A stretch of DNA of 45,380 nucleotides from a virus. The notes beneath the pieces are model-generated. The model worked only from the letters and a program-made list of their open reading frames with translations, did no database searches and was not told where the DNA came from. Positions within the stretch are counted from its first letter, which is position 1, and the number at the start of each line of letters is the position of its first letter. Made by a program: the position numbers and the translations under genes. Positions 7,183-14,214 of the stretch are shown one piece after another. The DNA lies in the IMG/VR virus record IMGVR_UViG_3300037087_000143, positions 1 to 45,380 of that record; one strand, given 5' to 3'.

Positions 7183-7211
7183 TTGACATATACCCAACAC
7201 CGTGCGATACT
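7183..7211 (+). promoter_or_regulatory. Sigma70 promoter of the plus-strand early operon
   Basis: TTGACA (7183-7188), a 17-base spacer and GATACT (7206-7211) form a strong sigma70-type promoter. The first ribosome site (GGAGG) follows only about 10 bases after the -10, so the leader is very short. A second TTGACA (7170-7175) overlaps upstream without a good -10. It would drive the compact gene set running to 12306. Confidence 0.75.
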
Positions 7212-7233
7212 TTAGACACGGAGGATGAAGAGG

Positions 7234-7386
7234 ATGAATACAACATTTTGGATGGGCGACACGATGGTCACGATCAAGGCACGGGACGATGCGGAGATCG
7301 TCAAGGCACTACGGGAGATCGTGGAGCGGAGAGACGATCGGTACACGGCGCAGTACGTGCGCAACTCGGAAAAGGATGGAGACTGA
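7234..7386 (+). CDS. Small protein, first gene of the early operon
   Basis: The 50-residue protein begins MNTTFWMGDTMVTIKARDDAE and continues with a charged helix (IVKALREIVERRDD). GGAGG lies 9 bases before this ATG; an in-frame ATG three codons earlier is too close to it. As the first early gene it may be a regulator, but no family is recognised. Confidence 0.65.
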   Translation: MNTTFWMGDTMVTIKARDDAEIVKALREIVERRDDRYTAQYVRNSEKDGD

Positions 7387-7387
7387 G

Positions 7388-7747
7388 ATGAAACCAGCCT
7401 ACGCTACCATTTCCCATGATGCGGGCCGGTTCGGATGGACGGGATACGCCGAGCCGACCGGACAGCCGGGGTGTTTCTCAACGGGCAACAGTGAAGGGTA
7501 CAGCGCCGAGCAATCATTTCATGATCTCTCCTCGGCTCTCCCGTTGATCCGGTTCGATGCGGCCGACCTTGACTCGGTATGGGCAGTGATCCGGATGCAC
7601 GACAATTGGCGGATTGAGAACGTTGATCCGCAGTACCATCACGCAAAGCCGGTCACTCTGGACGATTTCTTGACTATGGTCCGGGCCGCCGGGGTGCCAG
7701 TGGAAACAATCGGCGAGTACATGGCCAGAAAGGCCGGGAGGAAATAG
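7388..7747 (+). CDS. Hypothetical early protein
   Basis: The 119-residue protein begins MKPAYATISHDAGRFGWTGYA and ends EYMARKAGRK. GGAG lies 6 bases before the ATG, one base after the upstream stop. It has a mixed alpha/beta character with no recognised motif. Confidence 0.75.
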   Translation: MKPAYATISHDAGRFGWTGYAEPTGQPGCFSTGNSEGYSAEQSFHDLSSALPLIRFDAADLDSVWAVIRMHDNWRIENVDPQYHHAKPVTLDDFLTMVRAAGVPVETIGEYMARKAGRK

Positions 7748-7749
7748 CG

Positions 7750-8559
7750 ATGAACGCAATCGTTCCGCCGTTCTGTCACTATGAAATCTGCCGGGATGGC
7801 AAGATGGAACTTTGCGGCGCCGATGCTCCGGACGTCCTGGACGAATCGGGCAAGGTGAGGTGTACCGGGCTATGCGCCGAACATGCGGAATTTGTCATGG
7901 ATTCAACGCGCGGCCCGTTCACGGCGAGCAAGAAGGCTCACCCGGCCGGGTTCAATTGGTTGAGCAAGGCCCGGACTGCATACGGTATCAAACCTTTCTC
8001 TATGGGCAAGCCGAGCGATGCGGGGAAGCCGGCGCACAATCCATGCACTGCGGCCGAGTCTGCCGCATGGATTGCCAAGATGCCGAGATACAACGATGGC
8101 GGCGAGCCGGTGCGCACGGTGGAAATGATCGAAGCACGATATCAGGAGATCATAGCGGCCGAAGGCAATGGAACCGAGCCGGCTACCGTGTTCACGGTGG
8201 AAGGTTTGAACGGATTCACGGCGCACACTGTACCGAGCACGCCGGAGCCGGAGCCGGTTGACTTTGCAGCTCTTGAAAAGGAAATCCACGAGAACGTATC
8301 AGCCGGGCTCTCCGAACCGGCGCCCATCGCCCAGGATGACGGGCCGGCCGCCGATTACACCCGGGAGGAGATAGAAGCCGCGTGCGTTCGGCTCATGGAA
8401 GAGCGGGACACCTACCGGGGGACCGGGATCCCGGGCGTGCTCTGGAATGTCGGTTTCCGGATCGTGTACCAGAAGCGCGCCGGCAGTGACGCACAGATAG
8501 CATTCATCCGGGCACTGATTGCCAAGAAGCCGGAGAAGTACGCTCCGCTTCTGGTGTAG
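7750..8559 (+). CDS. Hypothetical early protein with Cys-rich N-terminus
   Basis: The 269-residue protein has an N-terminal Cys/His cluster (FCHYEIC, MELCG, RCTGLCAEH) that could bind zinc, a Pro/Glu-rich middle and a C-terminal helical domain (YTREEIEAACVRLMEERD onward). The stop TAG overlaps the first base of the hammerhead ribozyme, so ribozyme cleavage would cut the mRNA 38 bases beyond the stop. The frame stays open past the TAG to 8790. The function is unknown. Confidence 0.75.
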   Translation: MNAIVPPFCHYEICRDGKMELCGADAPDVLDESGKVRCTGLCAEHAEFVMDSTRGPFTASKKAHPAGFNWLSKARTAYGIKPFSMGKPSDAGKPAHNPCTAAESAAWIAKMPRYNDGGEPVRTVEMIEARYQEIIAAEGNGTEPATVFTVEGLNGFTAHTVPSTPEPEPVDFAALEKEIHENVSAGLSEPAPIAQDDGPAADYTREEIEAACVRLMEERDTYRGTGIPGVLWNVGFRIVYQKRAGSDAQIAFIRALIAKKPEKYAPLLV

Positions 8560-8625
8560 GCCGAAACGGCCGGGCGCTCCCCGCGCGCCGGGCCGTCAGC
8601 CCGTGTTACGGGCTCTGATGAGGCC
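8559..8625 (+). ncRNA. Type II hammerhead self-cleaving ribozyme
   Basis: All catalytic-core elements are present in the order of a hammerhead opened at stem II. They are: stem II strand GGCC (8559-8562); GAAA (8563-8566); stem III 8567-8577 with 8585-8595, ten pairs and one G-G mismatch around a 7-base loop; UC (8596-8597) completing the GUC site; stem I 8598-8604 with 8608-8614, seven pairs and a 3-base loop; CUGAUGA (8615-8621); and GGCC (8622-8625) closing stem II. A15.1-U16.1 and G10.1-C11.1 pair as required. Cleavage is predicted between 8597 and 8598. This is read from sequence alone; activity is untested. Confidence 0.93.
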
Positions 8626-8658
8626 GAGAGCGCGTGGGCAGTCGGTCCGGATGACACC

Positions 8659-8790
8659 GTGGAGAACGCGGAGCGGTGGGTACGCGCCAGGGGAGACGCA
8701 AAGCGCGTGCGCGTGGTCTACGATTCGCCCCGGCGCTACCGGCCGAGAAGGGCCGCGCACTTTCACGTCTACGTCTGGACGCCGAGATAG
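8659..8790 (+). CDS. Possible small basic protein downstream of the ribozyme
   Basis: The 43-codon GTG frame (MENAERWVRARGDAKRV, ending FHVYVWTPR) looks coding in composition but has no good ribosome site. The frame is open back through the ribozyme to the TAG of the upstream gene, so stop readthrough or a non-AUG start is possible. Between 8791 and 8880 there is GC-rich foldable sequence (a 7-base-pair hairpin at about 8793-8810, and GGCTC/GAGCC) but no gene. Confidence 0.35.
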   Translation: MENAERWVRARGDAKRVRVVYDSPRRYRPRRAAHFHVYVWTPR

Positions 8791-8894
8791 GGATGAGCCT
8801 TTCGGCTCATGGGCCGGGCTCCGGGGCAGACCGAGCCGGGGCCGGCCAGAGCTGCGGGCGACGAAGGGCGCCGAGCACAACGGAGGTTTGGGGA

Positions 8895-9170
8895 ATGGAG
8901 AAGAAAACGGTATTGACAGGGTTTGCCATCGTGGTCTGTGACCGGGGATTTGTCTACGTAGGGCAGATAACCCATGACGGAGAGTTTGCCGTTATCGAGG
9001 GAGCGCGCAACATCCGTTTTTGGGGAACAACGGCCGGCCTGGGGGAGCTGGCGCTTAACGGCCCGACGAGCAAAACAAAGCTCGACCTAGTGGGGATTGT
9101 GCGCGTGCCGGCGCGTGCAATCATCAACATCATCGACACCGAGGCCACGAAATGGCCGCCCTCGAAATAA
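8895..9170 (+). CDS. Hypothetical protein
   Basis: The 91-residue, beta-rich protein starts MEKKTVLTGFAIVVCDRGFVYVG. GGAGG lies 8 bases before the ATG. ITHDGEFAVIEGARNIRFWG and LVGIVRVPARAII suggest a small beta-barrel. Similar short beta proteins occur in phages, but the function is not known. It overlaps the next gene by 19 bases. Confidence 0.8.
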   Translation: MEKKTVLTGFAIVVCDRGFVYVGQITHDGEFAVIEGARNIRFWGTTAGLGELALNGPTSKTKLDLVGIVRVPARAIINIIDTEATKWPPSK

Positions 9171-9409
9171 CACTCGACGGCGACGGCTCCGGCTCCGGCT
9201 CCGGCGACGGCTCCGGCTACGGCTACGGCTCCGGCTACGGCTCCGGCTACGGCGACGGCTCCGGCGACGGCTACGGCTACGGCTCCGGCTCCGGCGACGG
9301 CTCCGGCGACGGCTACGGCTACGGCTACGGCTCCGGCTCCGGCTCCGGCTCCGGCGACAGCTCCGGCTCCGGCTACGGCTCCGGCTACGGCGACGGCGAC
9401 GGATCTTAG
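9152..9409 (+). CDS. Gly-rich low-complexity protein (Gly-Ser/Tyr/Asp repeats)
   Basis: The 85-residue protein has an ordinary start (MAALEITLDGDG) followed by about 70 residues in which every second residue is Gly and the others are Ser, Tyr or Asp. GAGG lies 7 bases before the ATG. The DNA is a run of GGC-TCC, GGC-TAC and GGC-GAC units. The absence of stops in other frames follows from the repeat, so only this frame, with a start and ribosome site, is called. The flexible acidic chain may phase-separate or coat a surface; no function is established. Confidence 0.7.
   Translation: MAALEITLDGDGSGSGSGDGSGYGYGSGYGSGYGDGSGDGYGYGSGSGDGSGDGYGYGYGSGSGSGSGDSSGSGYGSGYGDGDGS
9177..9400 (+). repeat. 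Hexanucleotide-based tandem repeat
   Basis: About 37 six-base units run in a row, each GGC followed by TCC, TAC or GAC. The order is irregular, with higher-order blocks such as TCC-TAC-GAC. Such tracts change length by slippage in whole codons. Confidence 0.9.
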
Positions 9410-10325: not shown

Positions 10326-11184
10326 CTTGGCCATCGTGCGCCCGGAGGCCGGGATTGCCCCCCCGGCCCTCCTGGAGGTCTCAGGTAGAAGCGTGGAAAC
10401 GACCACGCACTACCGGCGGGCAGCCGCGGCGTGGATCGCCTGGGCGAAGGGCCGGCCGTTGACCGCGCACCTGTTCGCGGCATGGATCGACGCCGAGCGC
10501 AGGAAGGGTGTGAGCACGGCAAAGCTCCGCGTGGAGCTGTTCGGCGTGAAGGCGGCCATCATGCAGGCAGGGGAAAAGGCCGGGATGAGCGCGCGCGAGC
10601 TCGCCGGCATGAAGGCGGCCCTGGACTCCATCCCGATCCCGAAGGCGCAGAAGGTGCCGGACATCGCGGTCGTGGACGGCCGGGAGCGCCATGCCCTGAT
10701 CGCAGCTCTATCCCCCCGCATGTCCTTGGTCGTGCGCTTCCTGTACGCCACCGCGGCCCGCGTCAGTGAGGCGATCGGCGTCCGGGAGACCGACATCAAG
10801 GTCATGGAGAAGTCGGCGCGCGTGCGGCTCCAGGGCAAGGGCAGGAAGGAGCGAACCGTCACGATCCCACTTGACCTGCTGGTGGAGATCAACGCGGAGT
10901 TCCACAGTCTGCGGCGCGTGTTCCTCTTCGAGGGCAGGCCGGGCAAAGCGTACTGCCGAAGCCATATCAGCCGGGCCATCGGGGAGTGCGCGAAGGCCGA
11001 GATCGGCCGGCAGATCGGCGCCCACGTCCTGCGCCATTCCCGGGCCACGGACCTGTTCGCCAAGAGCAGGAACCTCAAGGGAGTGTCCGAGATGCTCGGG
11101 CATTCAAGTATCGAAGTCACCGCCCGCTACTACGTGCGTTCCACGTTGAGCGAGGACGATCTCTGGAAGGGAGAAGATATCTGA
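10318..11184 (+). CDS. Tyrosine recombinase (integrase/XerC-D type)
   Basis: The 288-residue protein has a SAM-like core-binding N-terminal part (residues 20-105) and a catalytic domain with Arg148 (ATAARVSE), Lys in GKGRKERT (about 174-178), His236-x-x-Arg239 (HVLRH), His262 (MLGHSS) and Tyr271 or Tyr272. It should cut and rejoin DNA at specific sites through a phosphotyrosine. It implies either integration into the host chromosome or resolution of phage DNA multimers. The arm-binding domain of lambda-type integrases appears absent, so a XerC/D-like mode is possible. No attachment site could be identified. Confidence 0.9.
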   Translation: MSSLAIVRPEAGIAPPALLEVSGRSVETTTHYRRAAAAWIAWAKGRPLTAHLFAAWIDAERRKGVSTAKLRVELFGVKAAIMQAGEKAGMSARELAGMKAALDSIPIPKAQKVPDIAVVDGRERHALIAALSPRMSLVVRFLYATAARVSEAIGVRETDIKVMEKSARVRLQGKGRKERTVTIPLDLLVEINAEFHSLRRVFLFEGRPGKAYCRSHISRAIGECAKAEIGRQIGAHVLRHSRATDLFAKSRNLKGVSEMLGHSSIEVTARYYVRSTLSEDDLWKGEDI

Positions 11185-11960
11185 TGGGTGAGACAACTTG
11201 GAAAAGCGACCTGAAAGACGTGTCCTGGCTGAAGGAGCCGGAGGCAATCCTGATTGGATGGCGAGGGTCGATAGCCCACGGGATGTACGTCCCGAAAAAT
11301 GACCCCAACAGCATCGACGACAAAGACATCCTCGCCGTTGTCATTCCCGGGCCTGAGTTCTATTTCGGCCTGAAGGATTGGGGAAGCCGGGGCGTCAAAG
11401 AACTGATGCGCAACGAATGGGATTGCGTCGGCTACGAGCTGAAGAAGTTCGTTTCCCTGCTGTGCAAGGGAAATCCGAACGTCCTGGGGATGCTCTGGCT
11501 TTCCCGCGAGGACTATATGCTCCTTTCTGATGCAGGAAAAACCCTCATCGAGAACCGAAAGCTATTCGCAACCCGGCAGGCATATCACTCCTTCGCTGGG
11601 TACGCCCACGGCCAGCTCCACCGAATGACGCACATGGCCTTCGAGGGCTACATGGGAGAGAAGAGAAAGGCGCTGGTGGAAAAGCACGGGTACGACACAA
11701 AAAACGCGGCCCACCTGATCCGGCTTCTTCGCATGGGAATCGAGTTCATGACCGAGGGCGAGCTGCACGTCAAGCGCCAGGATGCAACACAGCTCCTTGA
11801 GATCAAACGGGGGGAATGGACACTGGAGCGGGTGAAGTCGGAGGCAGACCGTCTCTTTGCCTTGGCAGAGGAGAGCTACGTTCGCTCGCCCCTCCCGGCA
11901 GACATCGACCATGACAAGGTAAACGGGATGCTGGCCGACATTCTGAGGAGTTCCCTGTGA
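11184..11960 (+). CDS. Predicted nucleotidyltransferase (T4 NrdC.11-like, polymerase beta superfamily)
   Basis: The 258-residue protein carries the nucleotidyltransferase signature GWRGSIAHGMYVP followed by SIDDKDILAVVI, giving the GS motif and the metal-binding Asp pair. A helical C-terminal half (HSFAGYAHGQLHRM, HLIRLLRMGIEF) follows. This fits the phage/bacterial family that includes T4 NrdC.11. The substrate is unknown; nucleotide transfer to RNA or protein is possible. Its start codon shares one base with the integrase stop. Confidence 0.8.
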   Translation: MGETTWKSDLKDVSWLKEPEAILIGWRGSIAHGMYVPKNDPNSIDDKDILAVVIPGPEFYFGLKDWGSRGVKELMRNEWDCVGYELKKFVSLLCKGNPNVLGMLWLSREDYMLLSDAGKTLIENRKLFATRQAYHSFAGYAHGQLHRMTHMAFEGYMGEKRKALVEKHGYDTKNAAHLIRLLRMGIEFMTEGELHVKRQDATQLLEIKRGEWTLERVKSEADRLFALAEESYVRSPLPADIDHDKVNGMLADILRSSL

Positions 11961-13254: not shown

Positions 13255-14136
13255 TTAAACAATAGAACCGTTGCTAATTCTCCAATCCTCAGCCTCTTTG
13301 CGAGTCAGGAAGAAGTGAATCCCATGCGAGCATTCAACACGGATGTCGTCGTCGAAGGAGTCAGAGCGAACTATCTCTCCCACCACGTACCGCGTTGAAG
13401 GTCCATTTCCGCATCCATTCGATTCTACCGGCTCCCCGCCTTCGATGGAGATAACGCGCACAAACTCTGCTCGGCACTTACGGCCGATAAGGGAACCGAT
13501 TCGCTTTGACTCTGGCGGGATAGCGAGCTTTACGAGCTTATCCTGCACCTTTTTCCATACGATCAATTCTCCTTCATCGGGTATGCCAAATCCAGTAAGC
13601 TTCGCGCTGCGGAGGTCCGCGCTGCGGAGGTCCGCGCCGTAGAGGTCCGCGCTGCGGAGGTCCGCGCTGCTTAGGTCCGCGCTGCGGAGGTCCGCGCTGC
13701 GGAGGTCCGCGCCGTAGAGGTCCGCGCTGCGGAGGTCCGCGCTGCTTAGGTTCGCGCTGCGGAGGTCCGCGCTGCTTAGGTCCGCGCTGCGGAGGTCCGC
13801 GCTGCGGAGGTCCGCGCCGTAGAGGTTCGCGCTGCGGAGGTCCGCGCTGCGGAGGTCCGCGCCGTAGAGGTCCGCGCCGTAGAGGTTCGCGCTGCGGAGG
13901 TCCGCGCTGCGGAGGTCCGCGCTGCTTAGGTTCGCGCTGCGGAGGTTCGCGCCGTAGAGGTCCGCGCCGTAGAGGTCCGCGCCGTAGAGGTTCGCGCTGC
14001 GGAGGTCCGCGCTGCGGAGGTCCGCGCTGCTTAGGTTCGCGCTGCGGAGGTCCGCGCGTTCTCCTCCTTCTCCTTTTAGCCACTTCGCATGTTCTTCAAG
14101 AATCTTTTTCATCTCATCAATCGTGTAGGTTTTCAT
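13255..14136 (-). CDS. Pentapeptide-repeat protein with C-terminal DUF5758-like domain
   Basis: The 293-residue protein has a short N-terminal helix (EMKKILEEHAKWLKGEG), then about 30 five-residue units of A-[DN]-L-[RSY]-[SG] type (residues about 27-180), and a C-terminal domain (VWKKVQDKLVKLAIPPESKR, RKCRAEFVRVISIEG, GIHFFLTRKEAEDW). The repeats should fold as a right-handed quadrilateral beta-helix. Some such proteins mimic DNA, but most phage ones are uncharacterised. GGAGGAGGAG precedes the ATG. Confidence 0.88.
   Translation of the reverse strand: MKTYTIDEMKKILEEHAKWLKGEGGERADLRSANLSSADLRSADLRSANLYGADLYGADLYGANLRSANLSSADLRSADLRSANLYGADLYGADLRSADLRSANLYGADLRSADLRSADLSSADLRSANLSSADLRSADLYGADLRSADLRSADLSSADLRSADLYGADLRSADLRSAKLTGFGIPDEGELIVWKKVQDKLVKLAIPPESKRIGSLIGRKCRAEFVRVISIEGGEPVESNGCGNGPSTRYVVGEIVRSDSFDDDIRVECSHGIHFFLTRKEAEDWRISNGSIV
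13605..14056 (-). repeat. 15-base tandem repeats encoding pentapeptides
   Basis: About 30 nearly perfect 15-base units fall into three main versions (gcgctgcggaggtcc, gcgccgtagaggtcc and gcgctgcttaggtcc, as read on the plus strand). Near-identity at the DNA level, beyond what protein structure demands, points to recent duplication or recombination among units. Confidence 0.92.
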
Positions 14137-14214
14137 TTGCTCCTCCTCCTTGAAACAGTTCGGGAGATTCGAACATGTTCTCTCGCTGGGCCATCAATAG
14201 GATATTCAAGACCC

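What the first reader, a model, noticed from the sequence alone, without database searches (positions are those of the whole stretch)
8559..8625. Complete type II hammerhead ribozyme in the phage early operon
Seen: GGCC-GAAA, an 11-position stem III, GUC, a 7-pair stem I, CUGAUGA and closing GGCC in exact hammerhead order, with every core base intact. Known: hammerheads occur in bacteria and phages, with type II among the prokaryotic forms. Inferred: it cuts the early mRNA 38 bases after the stop codon of the upstream gene, separating 7234-8559 messages from the downstream Gly-rich, integrase and nucleotidyltransferase genes. The cut leaves a 5'-OH end on the downstream RNA.
Basis: partly seen in the sequence, partly recalled or inferred. 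Interest (0 to 1): 0.92.

Follow-up and report, generated by a model that had tools for sequence, protein, structure and literature searches.

The report
Phage type II hammerhead self-cutting RNA
Just after a gene's stop codon, this phage encodes a complete RNA element of a known self-cutting kind (a type II hammerhead ribozyme) that should split its early messenger RNA; it belongs to a common phage group in which the ribozyme usually sits on or beside a stop codon, and some relatives carry a tail that pairs with the catalytic core.

Summary
Positions 8559-8625 form a complete type II hammerhead: stem II GGCC/GGCC, GAAA, an 11-pair stem III with one G-G mismatch, GUC, a 7-pair stem I, CUGAUGA. 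Its minimum-energy fold is the hammerhead, no shuffled window gave one as good, and Rfam Hammerhead_II matches at 33 bits (E 3.6e-5), below the 37-bit cut-off. Another relative has lost the element, so it is dispensable. It is a new member of a known kind; type II hammerheads in phages and prophages, some near ardA or integrase genes, were published in 2011.

Two things go beyond that. Among 219 phage hammerheads of this subclass, a stop codon of an upstream open frame lies within 10 nt in about 80%, and overlaps or abuts stem II in about half, as here. About a third (not this one) carry a 3' tail N'UCAG that pairs with catalytic CUGAN; N' covaries with core base N7 (A in 31/32 with U7, G in 43/44 with C7), suggesting an alternative or post-cleavage fold. 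Cleavage and function are inferred, not shown.

The parts
8559..8625 (+). Whole type II hammerhead ribozyme (67 nt)
   Evidence: Direct reading; RF02276 33.0 bits; MFE fold; compensatory stem I in L004
8557..8559 (+). TAG stop codon of the upstream gene; its A is the invariant A(-1) and its G is the first base of stem II
   Evidence: A(-1) in 219/219 relatives
8559..8562 (+). Stem II, 5' strand GGCC
8563..8566 (+). Core G12 A13 A14 and A15.1 (GAAA)
8566..8596 (+). Stem III hairpin, 6+5 pairs around one G-G mismatch (8572/8590), loop 8578-8584
8595..8597 (+). GUC; predicted cleavage after C8597, 38 nt after the stop codon
   Evidence: Direct reading; hammerhead chemistry from established knowledge
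8598..8614 (+). Stem I hairpin, 7 pairs, triloop GUU; five inner pairs replaced with full compensation in L004
8615..8621 (+). Core CUGAUGA (C3-A9)
8622..8625 (+). Stem II, 3' strand GGCC
7183..7211 (+). Promoter-like site TTGACA-17-GATACT with TG before the -10; likely start of the transcript that carries the ribozyme
   Evidence: consensus match only; one found, 1.4 expected in shuffles
7750..8559 (+). Upstream gene, 269 aa, no Pfam or PHROGs match; its stop codon overlaps the ribozyme
8895..9170 (+). First downstream ORF with a clear GGAGG ribosome-binding site, 91 aa, weak DUF6948 similarity
   Evidence: E 1.9e-5, 25.2 bits, cut-off 27

Best explanation
8559-8625 is a functional type II hammerhead ribozyme in the intercistronic space of a phage early operon. 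The transcript starting near 7218 folds it as it is made and cuts itself between 8597 and 8598. Because stems III and I are both local hairpins in the type II permutation, cleavage gives an upstream mRNA ending in the stem III hairpin (2',3'-cyclic phosphate, stop codon kept) and a downstream mRNA starting with the stem I hairpin (5'-OH). It therefore works as an RNA-processing site that uncouples the two mRNAs and caps both new ends with hairpins. Shown: sequence, structure by covariation, placement on the stop codon. Inferred: transcription start, cleavage, end protection, differential stability or expression.
For: Complete core and stems; Rfam Hammerhead_II 33 bits; 0 of 400 shuffles as good; L004 differs at 10 of 67 positions, all compensatory in stem I; same location after the same C-terminal codons in L004, with an antirestriction-like gene starting 18 nt later; over 200 relatives in IMG/VR with an invariant A(-1) and a U-containing stem I loop; stop codons of frames with 60+ open codons within -10..+2 in 174/214, and overlapping or abutting in 111/214, versus 7.6% and 4.2% at control AGGCC sites; promoter-like site upstream and no + strand terminator-like site between. 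Literature: three tandem hammerhead arrays from bacterial genomes were cleaved in vitro, and those of A. tumefaciens also in E. coli (PMC3088659).
Against: No cleavage data for this RNA. Below the Rfam gathering score. With flanks, more stable competing folds exist in silico. The published loop I-tail pseudoknot is not supported in this subclass (22/91 against 28 in shuffles), so the speed at physiological Mg2+ is unknown. L002, a close relative, has lost the element by deletion.
Confidence: 0.85

Rival explanations
1. Translation-coupled switch: a ribosome terminating at the TAG covers the 5' strand of stem II and GAAA, so cleavage depends on whether the upstream gene is being translated; the element senses translation rather than acting as a constitutive cutter.
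For: The stop codon shares its A and G with the ribozyme here, and overlaps or abuts stem II in about half of relatives, 49% with one counted per flank cluster.
Against: Overlap may only reflect genome compactness, since A(-1) and G fit UAG, UGA and UAA endings; no direct evidence of regulation.
Confidence: 0.2
2. A structured but inactive or barely active relic, kept as an intercistronic hairpin (3' end stabiliser or spacer).
For: Below Rfam cut-off; no supported pseudoknot; competing folds; lost in L002.
Against: Five stem I pairs were replaced with perfect compensation while every core base stayed identical; core positions are kept across the subclass, although the search pattern fixed most of them.
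Confidence: 0.1
3. The ribozyme feeds an RNA repair step: the 5'-OH end is handled by the RlaP-family nucleotidyltransferase encoded in the same operon (10986-11960).
For: RlaP match E 2.1e-16, and Pfam places the family in RNA repair.
Against: No RlaP above its cut-off in 48 other viral records with such hammerheads, many of them fragments.
Confidence: 0.03
4. Chance resemblance.
For: GC-rich sequence pairs easily.
Against: 0 of 400 shuffles as good; covariation in L004.
Confidence: 0.01

Closest known systems
Type II hammerhead ribozyme, Rfam RF02276 Hammerhead_II; Perreault et al. 2011 (PMC3088659)
   Same: Same permutation, same core, same phage and prophage operon setting, integrase in the neighbourhood, A before stem II in the Rfam consensus.
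   Different: Scores 33, below the cut-off of 37; stem II is 4 bp GGCC/GGCC rather than the 2 pairs of the Rfam model; stem I closed by a triloop with no supported loop I-tail pseudoknot; stop codon fused to stem II.
Triple hammerhead array around ardA in Agrobacterium tumefaciens, and hammerhead-ardA pairs in Legionella (PMC3088659)
   Same: Intercistronic phage-type hammerhead; in relative L004 the gene right after it matches proteins annotated ArdA-like or antirestriction.
   Different: Single copy here; the gene after it in the window is not ArdA-like.
HDV-like theta ribozymes of gut phages (PMC10879173)
   Same: By its abstract, ribozymes in phage genomes.
   Different: Different ribozyme class, linked to tRNA-based recoding; here the two tRNAs are His(GTG) and Met(CAT) and far away.

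Membership tests
Type II hammerhead ribozyme (RF02276) | Core nucleotides CUGAUGA, GAAA, UH in order | tested here: met
Type II hammerhead ribozyme (RF02276) | Stems I and III closed by loops, stem II open | tested here: met
Type II hammerhead ribozyme (RF02276) | Stems conserved by compensatory change in relatives | tested here: met
   Stem I: 5 pairs changed on both sides in L004, and pairs 1-5 standard in 95/95 of the 17-nt stem I hairpins (the pairing filter used in collecting them biases this upward). Stem II was fixed by the search pattern and stem III is identical in window and L004, so neither is tested by this.
Type II hammerhead ribozyme (RF02276) | Score at or above Rfam gathering threshold | tested here: not met
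   33.0 against 37 bits; the threshold also misses most relatives scanned, so it measures the model's coverage and is not a defining structural feature
Type II hammerhead ribozyme (RF02276) | Loop I-3' tail pseudoknot (common, not universal, in the published set) | tested here: inconclusive
   No signal in the GGCC subclass; a 4-pair match exists in the window, but such matches occur at the frequency expected by chance
Type II hammerhead ribozyme (RF02276) | Self-cleavage 3' of C17 giving 2',3'-cyclic phosphate and 5'-OH | not testable with these tools
   Needs in vitro transcription or 5'-OH end mapping

The most novel reading that the evidence does not exclude
Phage type II hammerheads of the GGCC subclass are a standardised intercistronic device that shares its first bases with the upstream stop codon and, in about a third of members, carries a 3' anti-core tail N'UCAG. 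The tail pairs with catalytic CUGAN once the 5' fragment is gone, making cleavage irreversible and giving the downstream mRNA a double-hairpin 5' end. The window is a member without the tail.
Probability: 0.45. Interest if true: 0.7.

Novelty: new member of a known kind. Interest (0 to 1): 0.5.

Why it matters
The role of hammerheads in phages has been open since they were found. The finding gives a clean homologous pair (window and L004) with stem I rebuilt by compensation, ties the ribozyme to the upstream stop codon with a measured enrichment, and exposes a covarying anti-core tail in relatives. Each is directly testable at the bench. It also shows that Rfam's type II model, at its curated cut-off, misses much of a subclass that is common in viral contigs.

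Tried and rejected
Phage records similar at DNA level: none. Relatives through the nucleotidyltransferase: none. RNA repair link through RlaP: 0 of 48 above cut-off. Loop I-tail pseudoknot by complementarity and mutual information: no signal. Suppressor tRNA or TAG recoding link: the tRNAs are His and Met. Anti-core tail in the window or L004: absent from their tails (GAGAGCGCG, GAGAGTACG). Hammerheads in relatives G001, G003, G004 by RF02276: none, though G003 appears to end inside the early region and RF02276 is insensitive to this subclass. Half-ribozyme swapping as the cause of the new stem I: unlikely, because CTGATGAGGCC and the next five bases GAGAG are also identical.

Full report
What is there. 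The window is a 45,380-base virus record classed as linear with podovirus-like genes: head-tail connector, tail proteins, and an integrase. At 8559-8625 the sequence reads GGCC-GAA-ACGGCCGGGCGCUCCCCGCGCGCCGGGCCGU-C-AGCCCGU-GUU-ACGGGCU-CUGAUGA-GGCC. This is a full type II hammerhead: stem II open, stems III and I closed, and every core base the consensus. Its isolated minimum-energy structure is the hammerhead at -39.8 kcal/mol. Only this site in the window fits even a relaxed descriptor; 400 shuffles gave one relaxed fit and none as good. Rfam's type II model scores it 33.0 bits, E 3.6e-5, against a cut-off of 37.

Relatives of the same phage. L004 (3300037104_000416) has the element in the same place. 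Compared with the window, the last 28 bases before it and 57 of its 67 bases are identical; the 10 differences are 8599-8603 and 8609-8613, the two sides of stem I pairs 2-6, and all five new pairs are Watson-Crick. L002 (3300036886_000049) has lost it: the sequence jumps from the TAG to the equivalent of 8769. The ribozyme is therefore under structural constraint where present, and dispensable. In L004 the next gene starts 18 nt after the ribozyme with a GGAGG site; its relatives include proteins annotated ArdA-like and antirestriction in Mycobacterium and Citromicrobium phages. PMC3088659 reports ardA next to hammerheads in Agrobacterium and Legionella.

The wider group. Together with a second scan for N7 = A, C or G, 219 distinct hammerheads were collected. 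Collection required GGCC on both sides, most of the core, and pairable stems, so those features are built in. Not built in: A immediately before stem II in 219/219 (most of the chance matches lack it); a stem I loop resembling GUNANGC; and the stop codon. A stop ending a frame of 60 or more open codons lies within -10..+2 of stem II in 174/214 and at 0/+1 in 111/214; with one per flank cluster, 77% and 49%. At 2,384 control AGGCC sites in the loci of the first 107 of these hammerheads the figures are 7.6% and 4.2%. Placement in intergenic space would raise these numbers by itself, but would not by itself give the sharp peak at the exact overlap. The window belongs to this peak. The main text of PMC3088659 does not mention stop codons.

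The anti-core tail. In the first 107 hammerheads, 31 had AUCAG within 10 nt after stem II. AUCAG is complementary to core CUGAU. I predicted that where core position 7 is C, the tail should read GUCAG, and scanned for such cores. Of the NUCAG tails found, N7=U gave AUCAG in 31 of 32, and N7=C gave GUCAG in 43 of 44. The Fisher test I ran, p = 2.8e-20, used the table [[31,1],[0,43]], which leaves out the one N7=C tail with UUCAG, and it ignores relatedness. The tail occurs in 15 flank clusters with N7=U and 16 with N7=C, and four clusters hold both matched forms, for example L141 (CTGATGA, ATCAGTAAACGA) and L186 (CTGACGA, GTCAGTAAACGA). Position 7 is unpaired in the active fold (established knowledge), so the covariation points to an alternative helix. 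In the energy model the hammerhead state is more stable than the anti-core state before cleavage in 76 of 77, by 1.5 kcal/mol on average, while the 3' product's minimum-energy fold contains the anti-core hairpin in 77 of 77. This fits a post-cleavage lock, but a pre-cleavage brake is not excluded. I found no description of it in the open-access papers searched, which is a limited library. Neither the window nor L004 has this tail.

How it most likely works here. One promoter-like site (TTGACA-17-GATACT, TG before the -10) lies at 7183-7211, and no terminator-like site on the + strand was found up to 12000; these are consensus matches only, and 1.4 promoter-like sites were expected in shuffles. 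A transcript from there would cross the element. Cleavage after C8597 would leave the upstream message with its stop codon and the stem III hairpin at its 3' end, and the downstream message with a 5'-OH and the stem I hairpin. That both new ends are hairpins is a consequence of the type II permutation. I infer a processing and end-protection role; none of it is shown experimentally for this RNA.

What weakens it. With flanks, the energy model prefers other folds, so co-transcriptional folding would have to favour the hammerhead. The loop I-tail pseudoknot that speeds other type II hammerheads has no support in this subclass. RlaP in the operon suggested an RNA repair link, but none of 48 other records with these hammerheads had RlaP above cut-off.

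Verdict. The added interest lies in the stop codon fusion and in the anti-core tail of its relatives.

Noticed in passing
loci L026 onwards, e.g. the L141 and L186 hammerheads: About a third of phage type II hammerheads of the GGCC subclass carry a 3' tail N'UCAG complementary to core CUGAN, with N' covarying with N7. Absent in the window.
   Followed up: partly
L027 (3300038412_000035): At least six type II hammerheads in one 8.5 kb stretch, with similar stem III starts and stem I loops but differing, still paired, stem I sequences.
   Followed up: no
window 8813-8886: Stretch conserved at 97% in L002 and 82% in L004 ahead of genes that look different, beside a GATGAGCC-TTTC-GGCTCATG hairpin (about 8793-8812); possibly another structured element or a cassette boundary.
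   Followed up: no
window 8560-8790: The frame after the TAG stays open for 76 codons in the frame of the upstream gene, so readthrough would run through the ribozyme; no Pfam match.
   Followed up: partly
window 9152-9409 and 13508-14147: Two repeat tracts: an ORF of Gly/Ser/Tyr/Asp repeats, and a 15-base-period array.
   Followed up: no
window 10986-11960: RlaP-family nucleotidyltransferase (RNA repair family in Pfam, E 2.1e-16) downstream in the same direction; not found above cut-off in 48 other hammerhead-bearing records.
   Followed up: yes
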